This document shows positions 5,937-63,698 of a stretch of 63,698 bases of DNA, in pieces. Within the stretch, counting starts at the first letter, position 1. Each line of letters starts with the position of its first letter. A model generated the notes under the pieces. It searched no databases. It saw nothing but the letters and a program-made list of their open reading frames with translations, and was not told the origin of the DNA. Where the stretch lies: NCBI RefSeq assembly GCF_902806315.1, contig NZ_CADCWD010000057.1, forward strand, positions 1 through 63,698. The letters are read 5' to 3'. The position numbers were made by a program, and so were the translations under genes. This stretch comes from an uncultured Sphingosinicella sp. Lineage in GTDB: Bacteria; Pseudomonadota; Alphaproteobacteria; Sphingomonadales; Sphingomonadaceae.

Positions 5937-9444
<3,508 letters not shown>

Positions 9445-9448
<4 letters not shown>

Positions 9449-9648
9449 TTCAGCAGCATGAAGGCTGGGCGGCCGACCTTCTTGCGGCCGAGCACCTGCA
9501 GCGACACGAGCGTCTTGATGTCGGCGAGCGTGCCGAGATCGGCCCCGCAATCCTCGCAATCGACCGGACTTTCATCGCCGCCATTGATCGGGATGCTGAT
9601 GGCGTTGCCGCGGCAATTGTCGCAGCGCACATCGATTGAGACTGTCAT
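9445..9648 (-). CDS. Small zinc-ribbon protein
   Basis: The 67-residue protein carries two cysteine pairs, CDNC near residue 9 and CEDC near 31, arranged as a zinc ribbon, followed by a basic tail (GRKKVGRPAF). Function unknown; such proteins are frequent in sphingomonad genomes. Its TAA shares bases with the TAG of the convergent hydrolase gene (TTAG at 9445-9448). Confidence 0.7.
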
Positions 9649-9749
9649 GGCTAGGCAACCCCCTTCACCGCTACGACTGAATCCAACCCTTGAAGCCGCC
9701 CAGAGTTGCTTCCGGCGTTAACTATTTTTGCGGGAGGAGAGGTTCGCCA

Positions 9750-10163
9750 TCAGCTTGCGACGGCCGGCGCGATCAGCGGGAAGCGGGGGATGGCGACAGC
9801 GAAGCTCGCGCCTTCCGCGCTCACCATCTGGTAGCGGCCTTCCATATGGCCGGTGGGGGTGCTGAGCGGGCAGCCGGAGACATAATCGAACGAGCCGCCC
9901 GGCTCGATGATCGGCTGTTCGCCGACGACGCCCTCGCCCTGCACTTCGTGGCGGCCGCCGCGGCCGTCGACGATCGCCCATTCGCGGCTGACGAGCTGGA
10001 CGGCGCGGCCGCCACCATTTTCGATGCGAACATGATAGGCCCAGAACCAGCGGCCCTTGGGCGGCTCCGACTGCTCGGGAAGGAAGCTCACGGCCACGCG
10101 AACCGTGACGTCGCGCGTCGTGGCGCTGTGGGGGAAAAGCGATTTCACGATGCTCGCTTCCAT
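9750..10163 (-). CDS. apaG: ApaG domain protein
   Basis: The 137-residue sequence matches ApaG along its length: SLFPHSATTRDVTVRVAVSF, RWFWAYHVRIENGG, EGVVGEQPIIEPGGSFDYVS and CPLSTPTGHMEGRYQMV. ApaG has a fibronectin-III-like fold and is linked in enterobacteria to Co/Mg resistance and Ap4A metabolism; the biochemical role is unknown. AGGAG 7 bases before ATG 10163 supports that start over a TTG three bases upstream. It follows recO on the same strand with a 16-base gap, likely one transcript. Confidence 0.92.
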   Translation of the reverse strand: MEASIVKSLFPHSATTRDVTVRVAVSFLPEQSEPPKGRWFWAYHVRIENGGGRAVQLVSREWAIVDGRGGRHEVQGEGVVGEQPIIEPGGSFDYVSGCPLSTPTGHMEGRYQMVSAEGASFAVAIPRFPLIAPAVAS

Positions 10164-55898: not shown

Positions 55899-58034
55899 TT
55901 GAGGGACTATCAACTCATTTCCGGGATCGAGGTCGACGCGCGGCTCCGGTCTTTCCTCGAAGACGAGGCGCTGCCCGGCACCGGGATCGATCCAGCCTCA
56001 TTCTGGTCCGGCTTCGCCAGGCTGCTGCGCGAGCTCACGCCCGAGAACAAGCGCCTGCTGAGGAAGCGCGAGACGCTGCAAGCCGCGATCGATGCGCGCA
56101 ACGAGGAACTGAAAGGCCGCGCGCCTGATCCGGCGGAGGAAGCCGCGTTCCTGCGCGAGATCGGCTATCTGGTCGATCCCCCGGCTCCCTTCACAATTGG
56201 CACCGGGAATGTCGACCCGGAGATCGCGTCCATCGCGGGGCCGCAACTCGTCGTGCCCGTGAACAATGCACGATACGCCCTCAACGCCCTCAACGCGCGC
56301 TGGGGCAGCCTCTACGACGCGCTATACGGCACCGACGCAATGGGCAGCCTCCCAAGCGGCGGCGGCTACGACCCGGAGCGCGGCGCCCGCGTGATCGCCT
56401 GGGGCCGCGCCTTCCTCGACGAGATCGCCCCGCTCACCGGCGGCAGCCATGCCGATGTCGCGGGCTACAGGGTCAAAGGCGACGCGCTGGTAACGAGCTG
56501 CGGCACCCTGGCCGACCCATCGCTCCTCGCCGGATGGCGGGATGGCTGCATTCTCCTGCGCCGCAACAACCTGCACCTGGAGATCGTCGTCGACCCGCAG
56601 CACCGGATCGGCCGCGAAGATCGAGCCGGCGTCGCCGACATCCAGCTGGAAAGCGCCATCACCGCGATCATGGATTGCGAGGATTCCGTCGCCGCGGTCG
56701 ATGCGGAGGAGAAGATCGGCGTCTATCGCAACTGGCTCGGCCTCATGCGCGGAGACCTTTCCGCGAGCTTCGACAAAGGCGGAAGCCGGATCCAGCGCCG
56801 GGCCGCCGAGGACCGGGTCTACCAGGCGCCCGGTGGCGGCACGCTGACGCTGAAGGGCCGCTCGCTCCTCTTCGTCCGCAACGTCGGCCACCTCATGACC
56901 AACCCGATGATACGGCTGGACGGCGAGGAGGTCCAGGAGGGTCTCGTCGATGCGGTCGTCACCTCGTTGATCGCCCTGCAAGACCTCAACGGCCGCCGCG
57001 CCAACAGCCCGGCCGGATCGATCTACATCGTCAAGCCGAAGATGCACGGGCCCGAGGAAGCGGCCTTCGCCAACCGCCTGTTCGACCGCACCGAAGACCT
57101 GCTCGGCCTTCCCCGCCATACGATCAAGATCGGCGTCATGGATGAGGAGCGGCGCACCTCGGTAAATCTGGCTGCCGTGATCGCGGAGGTGCGGGACCGG
57201 ATCGTCTTCATCAATACCGGCTTCCTCGACCGCACTGGCGACGAAATCCATACCTCGATGCAACTCGGCCCGATGATCCGCAAAGGCGAGATGAAGTGCT
57301 CGGCCTGGCTCAAGGCCTATGAGGACAACAATGTCGACGTCGGTCTCGCCTGCGGTTTCCACGGGCGCGCGCAGATCGGCAAGGGCATGTGGGCGATCCC
57401 GGACCGCATGGCCGACATGCTGGCGCAGAAGATCGCGCACCCGCAGGCCGGAGCGAACACTGCCTGGGTTCCCTCGCCGACCGCGGCGACGCTTCACGCC
57501 ATCCACTATCACCGCGTCGATGTCGCCGTTCGCCAGCGCGAACTGGCGGGCCGCCCGCCGGCAAGGCTGCACGAGATCCTGACCATCCCCGTCGCTTCCG
57601 GCCGGAACTGGTCGCCCGACGAGGTGCGCGAGGAGCTCGACAACAACGCGCAGGGCATCCTCGGCTATGTGGTGCGCTGGATCGATCAGGGCGTCGGTTG
57701 CTCGAAAGTGCCGGACGTCCACGATGTGGGCCTGATGGAGGACCGCGCCACCTGCCGCATCTCTAGCCAGCACATCGCCAACTGGCTCCGCCACGGCATC
57801 GTGTCACGATCCGAGGTGGAGGCTTCGCTCGAGCGAATGGCGCGCGTCGTCGACGCGCAGAATGCAGTCGATCCCTTCTATCGCCCCATGGCGCCCGATC
57901 CAGCCGCGAGCCTGGCCTTCCAGGCCGCATCCGCCCTGATTTTCGGAGGCGAGCGCCAGCCGTCCGGCTACACGGAGCCGCTGCTCCACGCCCACCGCCT
58001 GAAGCTCAAAGCCGCCGCTCAAGAAGCAGGCTGA
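55899..58034 (+). CDS. glcB: Malate synthase G
   Basis: The 711-residue monomeric enzyme condenses glyoxylate and acetyl-CoA to malate. Blocks include [18 protein letters not shown] near 130, [19 protein letters not shown] near 254 with catalytic Asp/Glu, [20 protein letters not shown] near 375, [13 protein letters not shown] near 410 and HTSMQLGPM. The start is TTG at 55899 with AGAGGGG nearby. No isocitrate lyase is present, so it may serve glycolate use. Its end overlaps the convergent cupin-like gene by 16 bases. Confidence 0.93.
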
Positions 58035-58960
58035 ACCGGCCCCTCCTCGATCCACGCGCGGCCCCGCTCGATCTTCACGGCCTCCAGCTTCGCCATCTCC
58101 GCCACATAGCGGTTCGAGCTCCGCGCGGCCCGCTCGAATAGGGCGATCCGCTCGTCGAGGCTTGCCGCCGAGGACGCCTGCGCCTTGAGCCCCATGAACC
58201 GCACCCGATCGCTCGGATGGCCGTTAGCGAAGTTTTTGACGAGGTCCTTTCCAGCCTCGCCTCCATAATGCGCTGCAAGCGCCACGAGGGATTCGATCGA
58301 GACCCGGTTCAGGATGCCGTGGATGCAGTTCCGCTCGACGTCGAACCGATATTGATCCCGATATTCGTTGCTTCCGGGCAGTCCGAGGATGTTCACCGAG
58401 ACGGAGCTCTGTTCCGCGGGAAGCTGGATGTGAACGTCCCGGTGCGCCCGGTACAGCATCACCTTGCCCGGCTCGAGGCGCGACTTCTCGACGAACTTTA
58501 GATCGACAGGCTCGCCGACATAGCCGTGCACCCCCTCATAATCATATTCGTAATAGTCGCTCCAATAGCCTGAGCCGAGGTAACCGGCCGTCAGGAAAGA
58601 GAAGTTGTGGTCGTGGGCGACTCCATAGAAGAACGGGCTGGTCCCGCTGTTGCGGACCAGGCTGTCATCCTCAGCCGGCCAGAAGTTCGCGCGCAGGGCG
58701 AATTTGCTCGATCCGCTGTAGAGCATGATCACCTGCGGGGAATATTGGTTCTCCCGGATTTGCTTGGCGCACCGCGCCTTCAGCTCGGCGATGACGAGAT
58801 CGCCAAGGAATGTCGGGTTGTTCGCCAACTTCTTGAGCGCCGGCCCCCAGGAGGCGAGACAATCCTCGTCCTGGGAGTCGAAGTGTCCGGTCTCCAGCAT
58901 CTCGATGAGATCGCCGAGCTCGATCCGGTCGCTCGCATCGGTATCAATCACGCGCGGCAT
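58019..58960 (-). CDS. Cupin-like protein of unknown function, in the ECF-peptide locus
   Basis: The 313-residue protein has a central region that fits a cupin-type beta barrel: motif-1-like His116-Asp-His118-Asn in [10 protein letters not shown], Glu residues in DYYEYDYE, and a motif-2-like [18 protein letters not shown] with His173 and His177. The last 70 residues are helical and HEAT-like. No known family was recognised; oxidative or epimerising peptide modification is possible for a metal-binding cupin. ATG 58960 has GAGGAGG 7 bases upstream and overlaps the preceding gene by 13 bases. Confidence 0.6.
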
Positions 58961-59937
58961 TGCAGCGCCTCCTCTTGTTCGTCTTCGAAAAACAGGCTGA
59001 GCGTCTGCGTGGCCGCGAAACGCACCTCCGGATGAGGGTCGCCGTCCGCCATGAGACGCAGGTGCGGCAGGGCCCGTTCGGCATCCAGCGCCAGCATCTC
59101 GCGCATCACATGCCAGCGTGTATAGAAGTGCGGGCTTTGAAGCTCTTGTGCGAGTTCGGGCATGGCGTCCGCCCTGTTCATGAGCCGAAGCAGCGTAGCC
59201 ATTGTCTGGGTGCGCGAGCTCGCCTCGTCAGTGCTCACGGCCCCGATATAGCGCAACGTCCGAGAGTCGTAGTCGACGCTCAGCGGCGCCGCGCGAACGT
59301 GAAGGATAGCCTGCAGGCAGAGCATGTCCGATTTCACATGCTCGATGACCAGACTCTGGTAACGGCCGTCCATCAGCAGTTGAGCACCATCCTCGATCTG
59401 CTGGCGCCCCACGAAACGGCAGCTGCCGGCAACATCCTGACTGAAGTGGCTATCCGATTCCGGCGCCTCCCAGAAGGACAAGGTGGCGCCGCCGGCCTTC
59501 AGGAACCGGTAGCTCGTCATGAAGCCGGTGAAGCTGATGGCGGTCTGCCCCTCGGCTGACACCCGCTTGGCGGCGAGCGCATCGGCGCTGACGACGCCGA
59601 GACCGATGGTCAGCCCCGCGTCGGCATAGAGCATGTAGCCGGTGTTGATCTCCGTTCTCGTCGCTGTAAGCGGCGGCGAGAAAAACGGATCGGCCGAAGC
59701 ACCTTCGATCAGGTCGGTCATCAGGACCTCGATGTCGATCACCCGGTCCATGAAGCGATCGGCAGCAGCAAGCACGCCTTCCAAGCTTCTTTGCGGCATC
59801 GCCGCGAGGTCCGCACGAAGCTCGGCGAACATCGGGTGCGCCGACCAACGCGCCCTCCAAGCGTCAGCGGCAGCTCTCGACTGAAGCTGCCGGTCGTGGT
59901 CCGAGAGCCAGGCGCTCAGTTCGGGACCAATTTTCAT
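58948..59937 (-). CDS. HEAT-repeat protein with a beta-rich N-terminal domain, in the ECF-peptide locus
   Basis: The 329-residue product has an N-terminal helical segment (1-80), a beta-rich middle (TGYMLYADAGLTIGLGVVSA, FTGFMTSYRFLKAGGATLSF) that may be a second cupin-like barrel, and C-terminal HEAT/PBS-lyase-like repeats (TRWHVMREMLALDAERALPH, MADGDPHPEVRFAATQTLSL). HEAT repeats usually bind proteins or peptides. It lies 57 bases after the small peptide gene and overlaps the cupin-like gene, so the two products probably act together. GGGAGAT 6 bases before ATG 59937. Function unknown. Confidence 0.6.
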   Translation of the reverse strand: MKIGPELSAWLSDHDRQLQSRAAADAWRARWSAHPMFAELRADLAAMPQRSLEGVLAAADRFMDRVIDIEVLMTDLIEGASADPFFSPPLTATRTEINTGYMLYADAGLTIGLGVVSADALAAKRVSAEGQTAISFTGFMTSYRFLKAGGATLSFWEAPESDSHFSQDVAGSCRFVGRQQIEDGAQLLMDGRYQSLVIEHVKSDMLCLQAILHVRAAPLSVDYDSRTLRYIGAVSTDEASSRTQTMATLLRLMNRADAMPELAQELQSPHFYTRWHVMREMLALDAERALPHLRLMADGDPHPEVRFAATQTLSLFFEDEQEEALQCRA

Positions 59938-59953
59938 AGCATATCTCCCAACG

Positions 59954-59984
59954 AAAGCGCGGACGGCTCCGCCGCCCGCGCTTT
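59954..59984 (-). promoter_or_regulatory. Stem-loop between the peptide gene and its downstream genes
   Basis: Arms 59954-59966 and 59972-59984 pair over 13 positions (one G-U) around a 5-base loop. No U-run follows. Placed just after a peptide gene, such a stem may stabilise its mRNA or reduce read-through, giving more peptide than enzyme. Confidence 0.7.
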
Positions 59985-59994
59985 GAACGCCAAC

Positions 59995-60129
59995 TCAGCT
60001 CAGCATGTATGCGACGGCCAGCAGGGCGGCGATGCAGACCGGGCCGCCCACCTCCTTGTGCTTCACCGACCCCTGCATTCCGACGCTCGTCTTGAGTTCG
60101 GGGATACGGCTGATGTCGATCTTCTTCAT
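59995..60129 (-). CDS. Small peptide (44 aa), candidate modified-peptide precursor
   Basis: ATG 60129 is preceded by AAGGA at 8 bases. The 44-residue product is short of the usual gene-calling cutoff. Its first half is polar and basic (MKKIDISRIPELKTSVGMQG, then SVKHKEVGG); the rest, PVCIAALLAVAYMLS, is hydrophobic with a single Cys. The Gly-Gly at 28-29 could be a leader cleavage point, or the tail could be a membrane anchor. It lies behind an ECF-type promoter motif and before two unrecognised enzymes-like genes. Precursor role is inference from context; nothing matches a known RiPP leader that I recognise. Confidence 0.6.
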   Translation of the reverse strand: MKKIDISRIPELKTSVGMQGSVKHKEVGGPVCIAALLAVAYMLS

Positions 60130-60234
60130 GGTGACTGTCCTTCCTCCAGGTTGATGAGGAGGAGGGAGAGGACGTCCTCAGCCGGGCTGAAGCGGTCGAT
60201 CGCACGTGCATCAGGCGTCGCGGCTGCTTGTCGA

Positions 60235-60259
60235 AACGGCCGCCGGGCCAGATGGTTAC
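60235..60259 (-). promoter_or_regulatory. ECF-sigma-type promoter upstream of the peptide gene
   Basis: On the minus strand GTAAC (60259-60255), 16 bases, CGTT (60238-60235). ECF sigma promoters typically carry AAC in -35 and CGT in -10 at this spacing. It predicts a leader of about 100 bases. A 12-bp palindrome (60168-60179) lies in that leader. Confidence 0.55.
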
Positions 60260-60285
60260 GCCAATCAGGTCGTGTCCAATCCTTC

Positions 60286-60310
60286 CCCCCGAGCGCTCAA
60301 GTCTCGGGGG
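60286..60310 (-). terminator. Hairpin separating the sigma/anti-sigma genes from the peptide operon
   Basis: CCCCCGAG (60286-60293) pairs with CTCGGGGG (60303-60310) over 8 bp. It lies 50 bases after the membrane-protein stop. No U-run, so it may be leaky. Confidence 0.5.
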
Positions 60311-60360
60311 AGAAAGGAATCAGTCTCGATGCGTTAACTATTCGTTGGAAGCTTGAAGGC

Positions 60361-60996
60361 TCAGCCGACGGCCATCCCGTCCAGCTGCGCTTCCCGGCGA
60401 TATTCGCCGCTGAGGACCGCGAGCCGCCGCAGCTCGCCTCGCAAGCGCCGGACGATTTGCACCTGCTGAACGATCAACGTCAGCATGGCCGCCGCCAGTG
60501 CCGGCCCGACTAGGCCATCCGTGAATTTGTCAGCCACCGCGTGGCCGAGGCCAAGCAAGCTCCCTCCATGGTCGATGCTGTGGGTGAGCATTCCAAACAG
60601 CAGGATCACCAGCGGACTTGCGATCAGGCTCACCAAGGCCCGGTTCAGATCGGTCGTGGCTCGCCGGATCTGCAGATCGAGCAGGTGCGTACGCTCGCTG
60701 ACTTCCAGAAGATCGATGATCTGCTTCCTCATCAGGTGGCGCTTCCACGTGGACCAGAGGAGCGCCCCCGCGGCCACCAAGCCGATCGCGAGGGTCACCG
60801 GAGCGGGCTTCGAAAGGATCGCAAGCAGCACCGCCAAGGCGATCGCACCGCCGAGCCCGAGATCCCAATATTGAAGCAATGTCGCTCGCCAACTCACTCG
60901 GCGCGCGAGATCGACCAGCTCTTTTCGCTCATCCCTCTGAGGCTCCTCCGCCCAAAGGCTGGCAAAATCGTCCAGATCGTCGAAGTCGCTGTTCAC
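60361..60996 (-). CDS. Four-helix membrane protein, probable anti-sigma partner
   Basis: The 211-residue protein has an acidic cytoplasmic N-terminus (DFDDLDDFASLWAEEP), and four likely membrane helices near 48-65, 67-85, 120-137 and 160-178. Its GTG overlaps the stop of the sigma factor gene (GTGA, 60993-60996), the arrangement usual for ECF sigma and anti-sigma pairs. No zinc-type HxxxCxxC anti-sigma motif is present, so the role rests on context only. Confidence 0.6.
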   Translation of the reverse strand: MNSDFDDLDDFASLWAEEPQRDERKELVDLARRVSWRATLLQYWDLGLGGAIALAVLLAILSKPAPVTLAIGLVAAGALLWSTWKRHLMRKQIIDLLEVSERTHLLDLQIRRATTDLNRALVSLIASPLVILLFGMLTHSIDHGGSLLGLGHAVADKFTDGLVGPALAAAMLTLIVQQVQIVRRLRGELRRLAVLSGEYRREAQLDGMAVG

Positions 60997-61529
60997 GACC
61001 TTTTCTCCATTATGGATTTAAGCGCCGTCTTGGCGCGTTGGCAGCGGAGCATGGCGGCGTTGGTGGAAATGCCGAGCACCTGCCCCATTTCGGTATAGCT
61101 GAAGCCTTCGAAGCAGAGCACGATGGCCTCGCGTTGCGGGAGCGGAAGCAGCTGGATCGACTCGACCAGCTGCCGCTTCAGATCGTTCCTGACGGCGATC
61201 TCGTCGGGAAGCATGCCGTTCGCCCGCAGGTCCTCCGGGAGCTCCACCTTGCGCGGCTCGCGGGCGCGGCGGGTGACGTGGGTGATCGCCCGTTTCTGTG
61301 CGATGCTGGCAACAAACGTCTTCAGCGAGCTGTCGCCCCGGAAGGAGGGCAGCGCCACCCAGACGGCGAGCATGATGTCCTGTATCAACTCGCGGCGCAG
61401 CGCCTCGTCAGCTTCGTAGGAAAGCGCGATGCGCGAGATGAGCCCCGTGCAGCGACTCGTCACGTCTTCGAACAGACGCTCCCTCGCGGGTTCGACTGCA
61501 ATGGCGATTCTATCTGGCTGCGCTGCCAT
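60993..61529 (-). CDS. ECF-type RNA polymerase sigma factor
   Basis: The 178-residue protein has a sigma-2 region (LRRELIQDIMLAVWVALPSF with the RD-rich helix, FVASIAQKRAITHVTRRARE) and a sigma-4 helix-turn-helix (LPLPQREAIVLCFEGFSYTE, then MGQVLGISTNAAMLRCQRAK). ATG 61529 was chosen because GGGGGAA lies 6 bases upstream; in-frame starts further up are less likely. It heads a likely operon with the membrane protein and is divergent from the kinase gene at 61592. Confidence 0.85.
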   Translation of the reverse strand: MAAQPDRIAIAVEPARERLFEDVTSRCTGLISRIALSYEADEALRRELIQDIMLAVWVALPSFRGDSSLKTFVASIAQKRAITHVTRRAREPRKVELPEDLRANGMLPDEIAVRNDLKRQLVESIQLLPLPQREAIVLCFEGFSYTEMGQVLGISTNAAMLRCQRAKTALKSIMEKRS

Positions 61530-61591
61530 CGAATTCCCCCCACGCATCTGATAGCCTGGGAACACGCCACCCGAAAGGAGATACGCAGCGG

Positions 61592-62662
61592 ATGGACCGA
61601 AGCGCGCAGAATAGCGGCACAATCCAGGTTAGAACAGCGCATCGTTTCGATAGCTCCAATCTGGAGCAATGGCTGGTGCGGAACGTCGAGGATTTCCGCG
61701 GTCCGCTCACCGTCGAGCAGTTCAAGGGCGGCCAGTCAAATCCGACCTACAAGCTCGTCACTCCTGCCCGCTCATACGTGCTGAGGCGTAAGCCGCCGGG
61801 CAAGCTGCTCCCCGGCGCCCATGCGGTGGAGCGCGAATATCGGGTGATCTCCGCGCTCGGTCGCAAGGGCTTTCCCGTCGCCCAGGGGCTGGGCCTCTGT
61901 GAAGACGATAGCGTCATCGGCACCGCCTTTTACGTCATGGAGATGGTCGAAGGCCGCATCTTCTGGGAAGCCGCGCTGCCCGAAATCCAAGCCGCGGAAC
62001 GACCCGCTTATTTCGATGCGATGAACGACGCCATCGCGGCTCTCCACGGCATCGATCCGCAAGCGATCGGCCTCGGCGACTATGGCAAGCCCGGCGATTA
62101 CTTCGCCCGCCAGATCGGCCGCTGGTCAAGGCAGTATCTCGGCGATGAGGAGGCCGGCCGCGTTCCTGCGATGGACCGGCTCGTCGAATGGCTTCCCCGC
62201 AACGCCCCGCCGGACGGAGGCGACGCCCGCATCATCCACGGCGATTTCCGCTGCGACAACATGATCTTCCACCCCACCGAACCGCGCGTGCTCGCCGTGC
62301 TCGATTGGGAGCTGTCGACGCTCGGCCATCCGCTGGCGGACTTTTCCTACCATCTCATGATGTATCGCATGCCCGCCGGAATCACGACCGGCCTGGCGGG
62401 GCTGGACCTCCCTGCGCTCAACATTCCTTCGGAAGCCGAATATGTCGGCGCCTATTGCCGGCGCACCGGGCGCGACGGCATTCCGCACCTCGACTTCTAC
62501 ATTGCGTTCAACATGTTCCGGCTGGCGGCGATCGTCCACGGCATCAAAGGCCGCCTGGCGCGGGGCACCGCTTCATCGGCGCATGCTGCCCAGATGGCTG
62601 CCAGCCTCGAGCCGCTCGCCGAGCTCGCCTGGAGCCAAGCGGAGCGCGCCGGCCTTGGCTGA
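61592..62662 (+). CDS. APH-like phosphotransferase family protein
   Basis: The 356-residue kinase-fold protein has IIHGDFRCDNMIFHP near 211 (catalytic Asp and Asn) and LDWELSTLGHPLADFSYH near 230 (metal-binding Asp). This matches the ACAD10/11-like APH branch, often linked to acyl-CoA or 4-hydroxy-acid degradation rather than drug resistance. KGGQSNPTYKL near 45 is the nucleotide loop. Substrate unknown. AAGGAG lies 11 bases before the ATG. Confidence 0.88.
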   Translation: MDRSAQNSGTIQVRTAHRFDSSNLEQWLVRNVEDFRGPLTVEQFKGGQSNPTYKLVTPARSYVLRRKPPGKLLPGAHAVEREYRVISALGRKGFPVAQGLGLCEDDSVIGTAFYVMEMVEGRIFWEAALPEIQAAERPAYFDAMNDAIAALHGIDPQAIGLGDYGKPGDYFARQIGRWSRQYLGDEEAGRVPAMDRLVEWLPRNAPPDGGDARIIHGDFRCDNMIFHPTEPRVLAVLDWELSTLGHPLADFSYHLMMYRMPAGITTGLAGLDLPALNIPSEAEYVGAYCRRTGRDGIPHLDFYIAFNMFRLAAIVHGIKGRLARGTASSAHAAQMAASLEPLAELAWSQAERAGLG

Positions 62663-62677: not shown

Positions 62678-63698
62678 TTAGTTGGTCGGAAAGCCCCGCT
62701 TCTTGAGCAGCGCGTTCACGTCCGGGTCGCGGCCGCGGAACAGCCGGTAGGCCTCGGCGCGGTCGGTCTCGTTCCCCGTCGACAGCAAGGTCGTGCGGAA
62801 ACGGTCCGCGGTCGCCTTGTCGAACGGATTGCCCGCTTCCTCGAACGCGGCCCAAGTGTCGGCGTCCATAGTCTCCGACCACAGGTAGGAGTAGTAGCCG
62901 GCCGAGTAGGCGTCGGACGAGAAGAGGTGGTTGAACTGCGGCAAACGGTGCCGCATCACCAGCTCCTTCGGCATGCCGATCTTCTGCAGCGCCTGGGCTT
63001 CGAACGCATTGGGATCCACCACTCCGTCCGGGTCCATGTGCAGCATCATGTCGACCATCGCCGACGACAGATATTCCGCCGTCGCGAAGCCCTGGTTGAA
63101 GGTCGAGGCTTTCTCGATCTTCTGGATGAGCGCGGCCGGCATCGGCTGGCCCGTCTTGTAGTGCTTGGCGAAGCGGCTCAGCACCGGCTGGGTCAGCAGC
63201 CAATTCTCGTTCACCTGGCTCGGATATTCCACGAAGTCCCGCGGCGTCCCGCCGAAGCTCGGATAGTTGATGTCCGACAGGTAGTAATGGATGGCGTGGC
63301 CGAACTCGTGGAACAGGGTCTCGGCATCGTCGAGGCTGATCAGCACGGGCTGCCCCGCCGCGGGCTTCACGAAATTGTTGTTGTTGGACCCGAGCACGAT
63401 GTCGTCCCCAAGCAGCGCCGCCCGGCTCCGATAGGTCGTCGCCCACGCCCCCGAACGCTTGCCCGTCCGCGCATAATCGTCGCGGTAGAAGACGCCGATC
63501 TGCTTGCCCGTGCCGCGCTGCGTCACGCTGTAGGTGCGGATGTCCGGGTTCCACACCGGGACCGTCCCGGTGATCTCCTTGAAGTCGAGCCCGTACAGCT
63601 CACCCGCCGCCCAATATGACGCCTCGATGATGTTGTTGAGCTCGAAATAGGGCTTCACCTCCTCCTGGGTGAGGTTGTAGCGCTGCTTGCGCACCTTC
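62678..63698 (-). CDS. M3 family metallopeptidase (peptidyl-dipeptidase), C-terminal part
   Basis: The reading frame runs off the right edge; about 339 C-terminal residues are present. HEFGHAIHYYLSD is the thimet-oligopeptidase HExxH site, with the Glu ligand in ENWLLTQP-type context and YSAGYYSYLWSETMDADTW near the end, typical of M3A Dcp-like enzymes. It would cut short peptides. The N-terminus and any signal peptide lie outside the window. Confidence 0.92.
   Translation of the reverse strand, partial: KVRKQRYNLTQEEVKPYFELNNIIEASYWAAGELYGLDFKEITGTVPVWNPDIRTYSVTQRGTGKQIGVFYRDDYARTGKRSGAWATTYRSRAALLGDDIVLGSNNNNFVKPAAGQPVLISLDDAETLFHEFGHAIHYYLSDINYPSFGGTPRDFVEYPSQVNENWLLTQPVLSRFAKHYKTGQPMPAALIQKIEKASTFNQGFATAEYLSSAMVDMMLHMDPDGVVDPNAFEAQALQKIGMPKELVMRHRLPQFNHLFSSDAYSAGYYSYLWSETMDADTWAAFEEAGNPFDKATADRFRTTLLSTGNETDRAEAYRLFRGRDPDVNALLKKRGFPTN

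What the first reader, a model, noticed from the sequence alone, without database searches (positions are those of the whole stretch)
58019..61529. ECF-sigma-controlled 44-residue peptide with a HEAT protein and a cupin-like protein
Five minus-strand genes form a coherent module: ECF sigma factor, coupled four-helix membrane protein, a hairpin and an ECF-type promoter motif, a 44-residue peptide (polar N-half, Gly-Gly, hydrophobic single-Cys tail), a stem-loop, then two overlapping genes for unrecognised proteins (HEAT-repeat and cupin-like with His116/His118/His173/His177). RiPP loci often have this layout of precursor, attenuator and modifying proteins; control by a dedicated sigma factor would be unusual. 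I know of no described family with this exact set, but cannot search.
Basis: partly seen in the sequence, partly recalled or inferred. Interest (0 to 1): 0.85.

Follow-up and report, generated by a model that had tools for sequence, protein, structure and literature searches.

The report
Two-cupin peptide-modifying gene cassette
A tiny protein and two partner proteins, one shaped like an iron-dependent oxygenase, stay side by side in many related bacteria and in a few sit next to peptide-export genes, so this is probably an undescribed way of making a modified peptide.

Summary
The five genes are real and correctly placed. The core is a trio: a 40-60 residue peptide and two adjoining genes. 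All 51 relatives readable upstream keep the peptide ORF; it is under purifying selection. The 'HEAT' protein is in fact a cupin with a HEAT tail, the same plan as the last gene; the last gene keeps an invariant HxH...H site in a cysteine-dioxygenase-like fold, the first does not. They look like a catalytic/pseudo-enzyme pair. In three relatives the trio stands beside HlyD/MacB-type exporters with multiple precursor genes, in one beside a C39 exporter. Most loci, the window included, have no exporter nearby, and the window genome has no C39 peptidase. The ECF sigma and membrane protein accompany the trio in 8 of 52 loci; elsewhere an OmpR-type regulator does in 15 of 52. Best reading: a candidate new RiPP-like class with paired cupins; chemistry and product unknown. 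Ten full-text searches found no paper on it.

The parts
60993..61529 (-). ECF sigma factor, 178 aa
   Evidence: Pfam/NCBIfam sigma-70 ECF; 52-74% identical copy in the same place in seven other loci
60361..60996 (-). membrane protein, 211 aa, probable partner (anti-sigma?) of the ECF sigma; overlaps it by 4 nt
   Evidence: no Pfam family above cut-off; strong relatives (E<1e-69) in 6 of 296 family genomes, all six beside the cassette, plus four weak hits elsewhere
60281..60340 (-). upstream block shared by four loci of the genus, perhaps promoter or 5' UTR
   Evidence: alignment of window, L108, L109, L110; function not shown; hairpin within it not significant
59995..60129 (-). 44-residue peptide, putative precursor: IDI..IPELKTSVG..GS motif, then EVGGPVC and a hydrophobic tail
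   Evidence: homologue in 51 of 51 readable loci and profile hit in 56 of 70 others; purifying selection among relatives; only one profile hit in this genome
59954..59984 (-). 14-bp stem-loop between precursor and first partner gene
   Evidence: z -2.68; hairpin in the same gap in seven other places
58948..59937 (-). partner 1, 329 aa: N-terminal helices, cupin domain (about 91-235), C-terminal HEAT repeats
   Evidence: Pfam HEAT_2; AlphaFold model pLDDT 92.2; Foldseek to cupins; no His column reaches more than 36 of 51, and the window has no His at the three commonest barrel columns 92, 142, 232
58019..58960 (-). partner 2, 313 aa: N-terminal helices, probably catalytic cupin (H116, H118, H177), C-terminal helices
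   Evidence: AlphaFold model pLDDT 94.1; Foldseek best hits thiol/cysteine dioxygenases; the three His 49 of 49 and 48 of 49 hits in more distant loci, 47 of 48 places

Best explanation
The cassette makes a post-translationally modified peptide. Step 1 (ORF and its conservation shown; expression inferred): a 40-60 residue precursor with a conserved N-terminal motif (I-D-[IL]-x-x-[LI]-P-x-L ... G ... GS) and an Ile/Val-rich C-terminal part is translated; in this genus an intergenic hairpin may give more precursor than enzyme (inferred). Step 2 (inferred): the two cupin/HEAT proteins work as a heterodimer in which partner 1 binds the precursor N-terminus and partner 2, holding Fe(II) or another metal at H116/H118/H177, oxidises the C-terminal part. 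Step 3 (inferred from a few relatives): the product leaves through HlyD/MacB or C39 ABC systems where these are present; in the window organism a distant exporter is used or the product acts inside. Step 4 (linkage shown, function inferred): the ECF sigma and its membrane partner switch the operon on in this genus and in L003 and L097; an OmpR-type regulator does so in some other loci.
For: Peptide, partner 1, partner 2 order in 51 of 51 readable loci; peptide-profile hit only at that place (56 of 70 loci, 0 elsewhere in 12,586 ORFs, 0 of 30,759 shuffled); peptide pN/pS 0.10-0.51 (29 pairs); metal-site residues 49 of 49 and 48 of 49; cupin folds of both partners. Precursor multiplication: five tandem peptides in L033, two before the second pair of L097, two in L148. 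Export genes beside the trio: L148 (Yip1, HlyD, ABC ATPase, MacB permease upstream; ABC ATPase and ABC-2 permease downstream), L033 (Yip1, HlyD, ABC ATPase, MacB permease), L097 of the window's own family (sigma, membrane protein, two trios, HlyD, ABC ATPase, two FtsX permeases, ABC exporter), L092 (C39 ABC exporter about 0.9 kb from a peptide with an LTLDEADVVSAG stretch).
Against: No modified product is known, no invariant target residue was found in the C-terminal part, and cupin chemistry cannot be read from sequence. Most loci have no such exporter: relatives of L148's HlyD in 3 of 101 loci, of its MacB permease in 2 of 101. The window genome has no C39 match. In the Erythrobacteraceae-type loci the cassette keeps the same neighbours and the peptide is conserved throughout, unlike a diversifying antibiotic. 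L149 has no clear small ORF upstream and L140 none on the coding strand. Partner 1 is very divergent: 8 of 53 loci gave no tblastn hit at E 0.01 (two are cut). Foldseek similarity is partial (TM by query at best 0.43).
Confidence: 0.6

Rival explanations
1. The peptide is a small permanent subunit of a heteromeric cupin enzyme that acts on a small metabolite; the hydrophobic tail packs against the cupin barrel or the membrane. Nothing is secreted.
For: In the Erythrobacteraceae-type loci the trio keeps the same neighbours, the peptide is conserved over its whole length, and most loci have no exporter of the kinds searched.
Against: Tandem precursor copies (five in L033) and exporters beside the trio are not expected of a subunit; C-terminal sequences switch type while the metal site stays the same.
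Confidence: 0.2
2. The catalytic cupin is a peptide thiol dioxygenase: it oxidises the lone Cys of the EVGGPxC motif to sulfinic acid, as an oxygen or redox signal read by the sigma-membrane pair.
For: Closest folds are thiol dioxygenases, with plant cysteine oxidase PCO4 among the hits (that PCO4 acts on protein Cys is recalled); most window-type peptides keep a Cys just after GG.
Against: Only 24 of 111 distinct peptides contain Cys while the metal site is invariant across Cys and Cys-less types. The Cys is internal.
Confidence: 0.1
3. An unmodified hydrophobic bacteriocin or toxin with the two cupin proteins as immunity or antitoxin partners.
For: The most hydrophobic stretch lies in the C-terminal half in 110 of 111 peptides; ABC ATPase plus ABC-2 permease next to the trio in L148 could be immunity.
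Against: The invariant metal site and its neighbouring loop point to catalysis; the same neighbours over many Erythrobacteraceae-type loci suggest long vertical inheritance, unusual for bacteriocins.
Confidence: 0.08

Closest known systems
RiPP clusters with HlyD/MacB-type export, such as darobactin (recalled; only a search listing was seen)
   Same: short precursor, adjacent candidate modifying proteins, HlyD-MacB type exporter in L148, L033, L097
   Different: two paired cupin/HEAT proteins instead of a radical SAM enzyme; no exporter at the window locus
Cupin-like hydroxylases of RiPPs: PbsQ/BpmG of the biphenomycin-like clusters (PMC12257519, passages seen)
   Same: a cupin-fold protein acting on a ribosomal precursor peptide
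   Different: PbsQ is described there as related to a JmjC-domain protein and works with an MNIO; here the fold is nearest thiol dioxygenases, two cupins form the core, and no Pfam cupin family is hit
Cysteine/thiol dioxygenase family (CDO, 3MDO-like 4tlf, mercaptosuccinate dioxygenase, PCO4)
   Same: best structural neighbours of partner 2; conserved HxH...H
   Different: no detectable sequence similarity (0 hits), extra helical N- and C-terminal parts, a partner protein and a peptide
Proteusin-like clusters with a cupin_4 enzyme and NHLP domain in sponge symbionts (PMC9426513, passages seen)
   Same: cupin beside a precursor
   Different: different leader family; no NHLP match for our 52 aligned peptides at E 0.1 in Pfam or NCBIfam
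Double-glycine leader peptides exported by C39 ABC transporters
   Same: L138/L139 peptides carry LTLEDAEFVSGGG and L092's LTLDEADVVSAG; L092 has a C39 ABC gene next door
   Different: other family peptides do not show it clearly; window genome has no C39 match

Membership tests
RiPP biosynthetic cluster | short gene for a ribosomal precursor | tested here: met
   (conservation of the ORF; translation itself not shown)
RiPP biosynthetic cluster | precursor with conserved leader and separable core | tested here: inconclusive
   N-terminal columns P 96, L 92, G 99 of 102; C-terminal part more variable between groups but conserved within the Erythrobacteraceae type
RiPP biosynthetic cluster | modifying enzyme encoded next to the precursor | tested here: inconclusive
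   cupin with invariant metal site; activity on the peptide not shown
RiPP biosynthetic cluster | export or proteolysis genes in the cluster | tested here: inconclusive
   direct neighbours at the window are an APH-family kinase and malate synthase; present in L148, L033, L097, L092; rare over 101 loci
RiPP biosynthetic cluster | post-translationally modified product | not testable with these tools
   needs mass spectrometry
Known precursor families in Pfam/NCBIfam | match of the peptide to a family model | tested here: not met
   1 of 52 members, one weak hit at 0.042 to an unrelated family; 0 of 52; NCBIfam, 0 of 7 divergent ones
Cysteine dioxygenase family | cupin fold with three-His metal site | tested here: met
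   (fold predicted; HxH...H invariant; geometry of the site not inspected)
Cysteine dioxygenase family | sequence homology to the family | tested here: not met
   no cupin or dioxygenase family or chain hit
Cysteine dioxygenase family | thiol substrate | not testable with these tools
   Cys absent from 87 of 111 distinct peptides
ECF sigma / anti-sigma pair | sigma regions 2 and 4 | tested here: met
ECF sigma / anti-sigma pair | co-encoded membrane anti-sigma that binds the sigma | not testable with these tools
   co-encoded membrane protein found; binding unknown, no anti-sigma Pfam hit

The most novel reading that the evidence does not exclude
A new RiPP class defined by a heterodimeric enzyme of two cupin/HEAT proteins of the same plan, one catalytic and one a pseudo-enzyme that reads the precursor, performing an unknown oxidation on Ile/Val-rich C-terminal segments, and in some sphingomonads placed under its own ECF sigma-membrane protein switch.
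Probability: 0.42. Interest if true: 0.87.

Novelty: new variant of a known kind. Interest (0 to 1): 0.72.

Why it matters
If the peptide is modified, this is a precursor-plus-enzyme system in about a third of the family genomes sampled (104 of 298) whose peptide and catalytic partner no Pfam or NCBIfam model covers, so mining that relies on known enzymes would miss it. It would add thiol-dioxygenase-like cupins working with a pseudo-enzyme partner to the peptide-modifying repertoire, with a dedicated ECF switch in some genomes. The cassette is three small genes, so the question is directly testable by co-expression and mass spectrometry.

Tried and rejected
Profile comparison of the two partners aligns only the C-terminal helices, probability 25, so kinship of their cupin domains rests on architecture and fold. 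Solved-structure sequence search: nothing for partner 2; three alphaRep designs and one other chain, all at E 0.07-0.4, for partner 1. Phage records: no match. PADLOC: no match for three proteins. Rfam over 57800-61800: no match at gathering. Sigma-70 promoter scan (1 found, 0.6 expected) and terminator scan (1 found, 2.5 expected). Shared -35/-10 pairs upstream of peptide or sigma: at most 4 of 8 loci. Cys oxidation as the general chemistry: most peptides lack Cys. C39 export as the general route: 13 of 26 chosen genomes have a C39 domain, and carriers such as G000, G475, G553, G376, G131, G250, G364, G865, G1295 have none. ABC ATPase relatives also lie near L002/L100, L098 and L124; not followed up. 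Literature: searches returned no paper; some returned listings, from which three papers were opened at passages only; none describes this cassette. The library is open-access only.
Full report
What is there. On the minus strand the five ORFs are as described: ECF sigma 60993-61529, membrane protein 60361-60996, 44-residue peptide MKKIDISRIPELKTSVGMQGSVKHKEVGGPVCIAALLAVAYMLS at 59995-60129, a 329-residue gene at 58948-59937 and a 313-residue gene at 58019-58960. Pfam recognises the sigma and the HEAT tail of the fourth gene, NCBIfam the sigma; the peptide, the membrane protein and the last gene have no match above cut-off. The flanking genes, on the other strand, are an APH-family kinase and malate synthase.

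Relatives. A search with the last gene returned 53 loci, labelled with sphingomonad names or broader ones, and one labelled uncultured Ferrimonas. Two (L027, L053) are cut off upstream. In the 51 others a small ORF lies directly before the gene that overlaps or abuts the last gene: 46 found by a script whose motif came from looking and five by eye. Partner 1 is far less conserved: 8 of 53 loci gave no tblastn hit with the window's at E 0.01, and in L029 its frame is short (196 aa); in L045 the last gene's frame is cut to 122 aa. In sampled genomes the last gene's profile hits 104 of 298 of the family, 10 of 299 of the phylum, 5 of 337 of the class, 4 of 118 of the family of the distant carrier G126 and 2 of 321 of that genome's class. 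Of 70 non-duplicate loci among L055-L130, 56 have a peptide-profile hit at E<=1e-3 at the start of the HEAT frame on the same strand; there is no hit elsewhere among 12,586 ORFs and none among 30,759 shuffled ORFs. These loci are not fully independent of the profile: 13 of 61 peptides taken from them end identically to one in the alignment. Of the 14 without a hit, L116 is cut by its contig end, L104, L112, L117 and L121 have weak hits (E 0.32 to 0.0028), and nine have an ORF with a good Shine-Dalgarno sequence that I picked by eye. Among still more distant loci, L136-L139 and L148 have candidates, L141 one by eye. Failures: L140 has none on the coding strand, only one on the opposite strand, and L149 has none clear upstream.

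The peptide. Over 29 close pairs its pN/pS is 0.10-0.51, lower than that of the HEAT gene in 25, equal in one and higher in three (pS is high, so ratios are rough). Over 102 aligned distinct peptides the N-terminal half has near-invariant P (96), L (92) and G (99). With the nine picked by eye added (111), the most hydrophobic nine residues start in the C-terminal half in 110, are about 53% Ile/Val, and exceed those of shuffled versions 83% of the time. Two broad types exist: EVGGPxC (window, L002-L005, L033, L098 and others) and DD(T/R)IVVI..YxY(E/D) (Erythrobacteraceae-type loci). Cys occurs in 24 of 111. The own genome has one profile hit, the window's.

The two partners. AlphaFold models from alignments of 49 and 51 rows are confident: pLDDT 94.1 and 92.2. 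Partner 2 has helices, a beta part at about 77-216 and C-terminal helices; the best PDB neighbours are thiol dioxygenases: 4tlf at E 2.7e-8, mercaptosuccinate dioxygenase, rat CDO, ergothioneine dioxygenase, PCO4, with TM by query at best 0.43. In 49 hits from the more distant loci (48 places, since L091 and L136 are one) 48 keep all three His; the exception is L102, whose hit contains a stop. The S134-E142 loop varies in that set. Partner 1 also has a beta domain (91-235) between helices and HEAT repeats; its neighbours are cupins too. Its commonest barrel His columns are 92 (36 of 51), 232 (31) and 142 (22), and the window has none of them, so I infer a pseudo-enzyme, at least here. Profile comparison aligns only the C-terminal helices.

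Export context. Most loci have no exporter of the kinds searched: relatives of L148's HlyD in 3 of 101 loci, of its MacB permease in 2 of 101. But in four loci the picture is that of a peptide-production cluster. On Alteromonas stellipolaris plasmid pASTE61-200 (L148) the order is Yip1, HlyD, ABC ATPase, MacB permease, two small peptides, partner 1, partner 2, ABC ATPase, ABC-2 permease. In L033 five tandem peptide genes (139-nt repeats, 62-100% identical to the reference) precede the pair, followed by Yip1, HlyD, ABC ATPase, MacB permease and a His_kinase-domain protein. In L097, a genome of the window's own family and the only one of 24 of its genus with the cassette, sigma, membrane protein, one peptide, pair, two peptides, second pair, HlyD, ABC ATPase, two FtsX permeases and an ABC exporter follow on one strand. 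In L092 a C39 ABC exporter lies about 0.9 kb from a peptide with an LTLDEADVVSAG stretch, divergently. L136 and L137 lie next to RND plus HlyD genes, which may be chance. L138 has non-ribosomal peptide synthetase modules about 2.7 kb upstream of its peptide. The window genome has no C39 match at 95.8% completeness.

Regulation. Among 52 loci compared (L002 and L100 are one place), sigma and membrane protein lie upstream of the cassette in eight: window, L003, L097, L099, L101, L108, L109, L110. In 296 family genomes the membrane protein has six strong hits, all beside the cassette, and four weak ones elsewhere; the sigma was not searched genome-wide. In 15 of the 52 loci a gene of one sequence group, an OmpR-type DNA-binding protein, starts at or within 200 nt of the end of partner 2; six of the 15 were scanned with Pfam and show Trans_reg_C and no receiver domain; L099's looks like a complete response regulator. 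A hairpin fills the gap after the peptide in the window and in seven other places; it was not seen in six other loci with a gap over 25 nt, and L098 could not be judged (simple shuffles, several z near -2). Four loci of the genus share a block upstream of the peptide; no promoter was established.

How it most likely works. Shown: gene order, conservation, purifying selection, metal-site conservation, predicted folds, a membrane protein that goes with the cassette, exporters and tandem precursors in a few relatives. Inferred: that the peptide is the substrate, that partner 1 recognises it, that partner 2 oxidises it, that the sigma drives the operon. Confidence 0.6. The main rival, a three-subunit enzyme with the peptide as a structural part, fits the Erythrobacteraceae-type loci better than the exporter-linked ones.

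Comparison with the known. It works like a RiPP cluster but membership is open: no known precursor family, no known cupin family, no product. Cupin-like hydroxylases in RiPP pathways exist (PbsQ; PMC12257519, passages), a cupin_4 with NHLP domains has been noted (PMC9426513, passages) and a Nif11/cupin in Synechococcus (PMC10783134, passage); those passages do not describe this pair. The likeness to darobactin-type export is recalled. The literature searches are listed in Tried and rejected.

Noticed in passing
window 60281-60340 (-): Block upstream of the peptide shared by four loci of the genus (about GACAG/ACTG..., GGGACT.AAGC...GGGGGAAG); may be a promoter, 5' UTR element or small RNA.
   Followed up: partly
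window 62678-63694 (-): ORF with an HEFGHAIHYY zinc-peptidase-like motif (family recalled, not tested), running to the window end, upstream of the APH-family kinase.
   Followed up: no
L140:6973-7920: A Cupin_8/JmjC-type gene (Pfam 4.4e-41) lies directly before the divergent pair of G865, suggesting a further hydroxylase.
   Followed up: partly
L138:6093-6326 (-): Small ORF ending NIGGGQPMMLAKDTGPSFCTQQQLAGHTGPTLCTAAKEA near the synthetase modules and the trio; looks like another leader-type peptide.
   Followed up: no
L149 (Vibrio sp. ED002 plasmid) 8294-9850: Most divergent pair, on a 33-kb plasmid with restriction-modification genes and a Tn3 transposase; a 59-residue ORF follows the pair instead of preceding it.
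   Followed up: partly
L098-L101 (genomes G475, G583): Two genomes of the window's genus carry two cassettes each, one with and one without the sigma-membrane pair, each with its own peptide.
   Followed up: partly
peptides of L120 and L123: Tails such as MDVVIAIIVNR and SDHIIISIITNP resemble streptococcal short hydrophobic pheromones (recalled), hinting at a signalling role.
   Followed up: no
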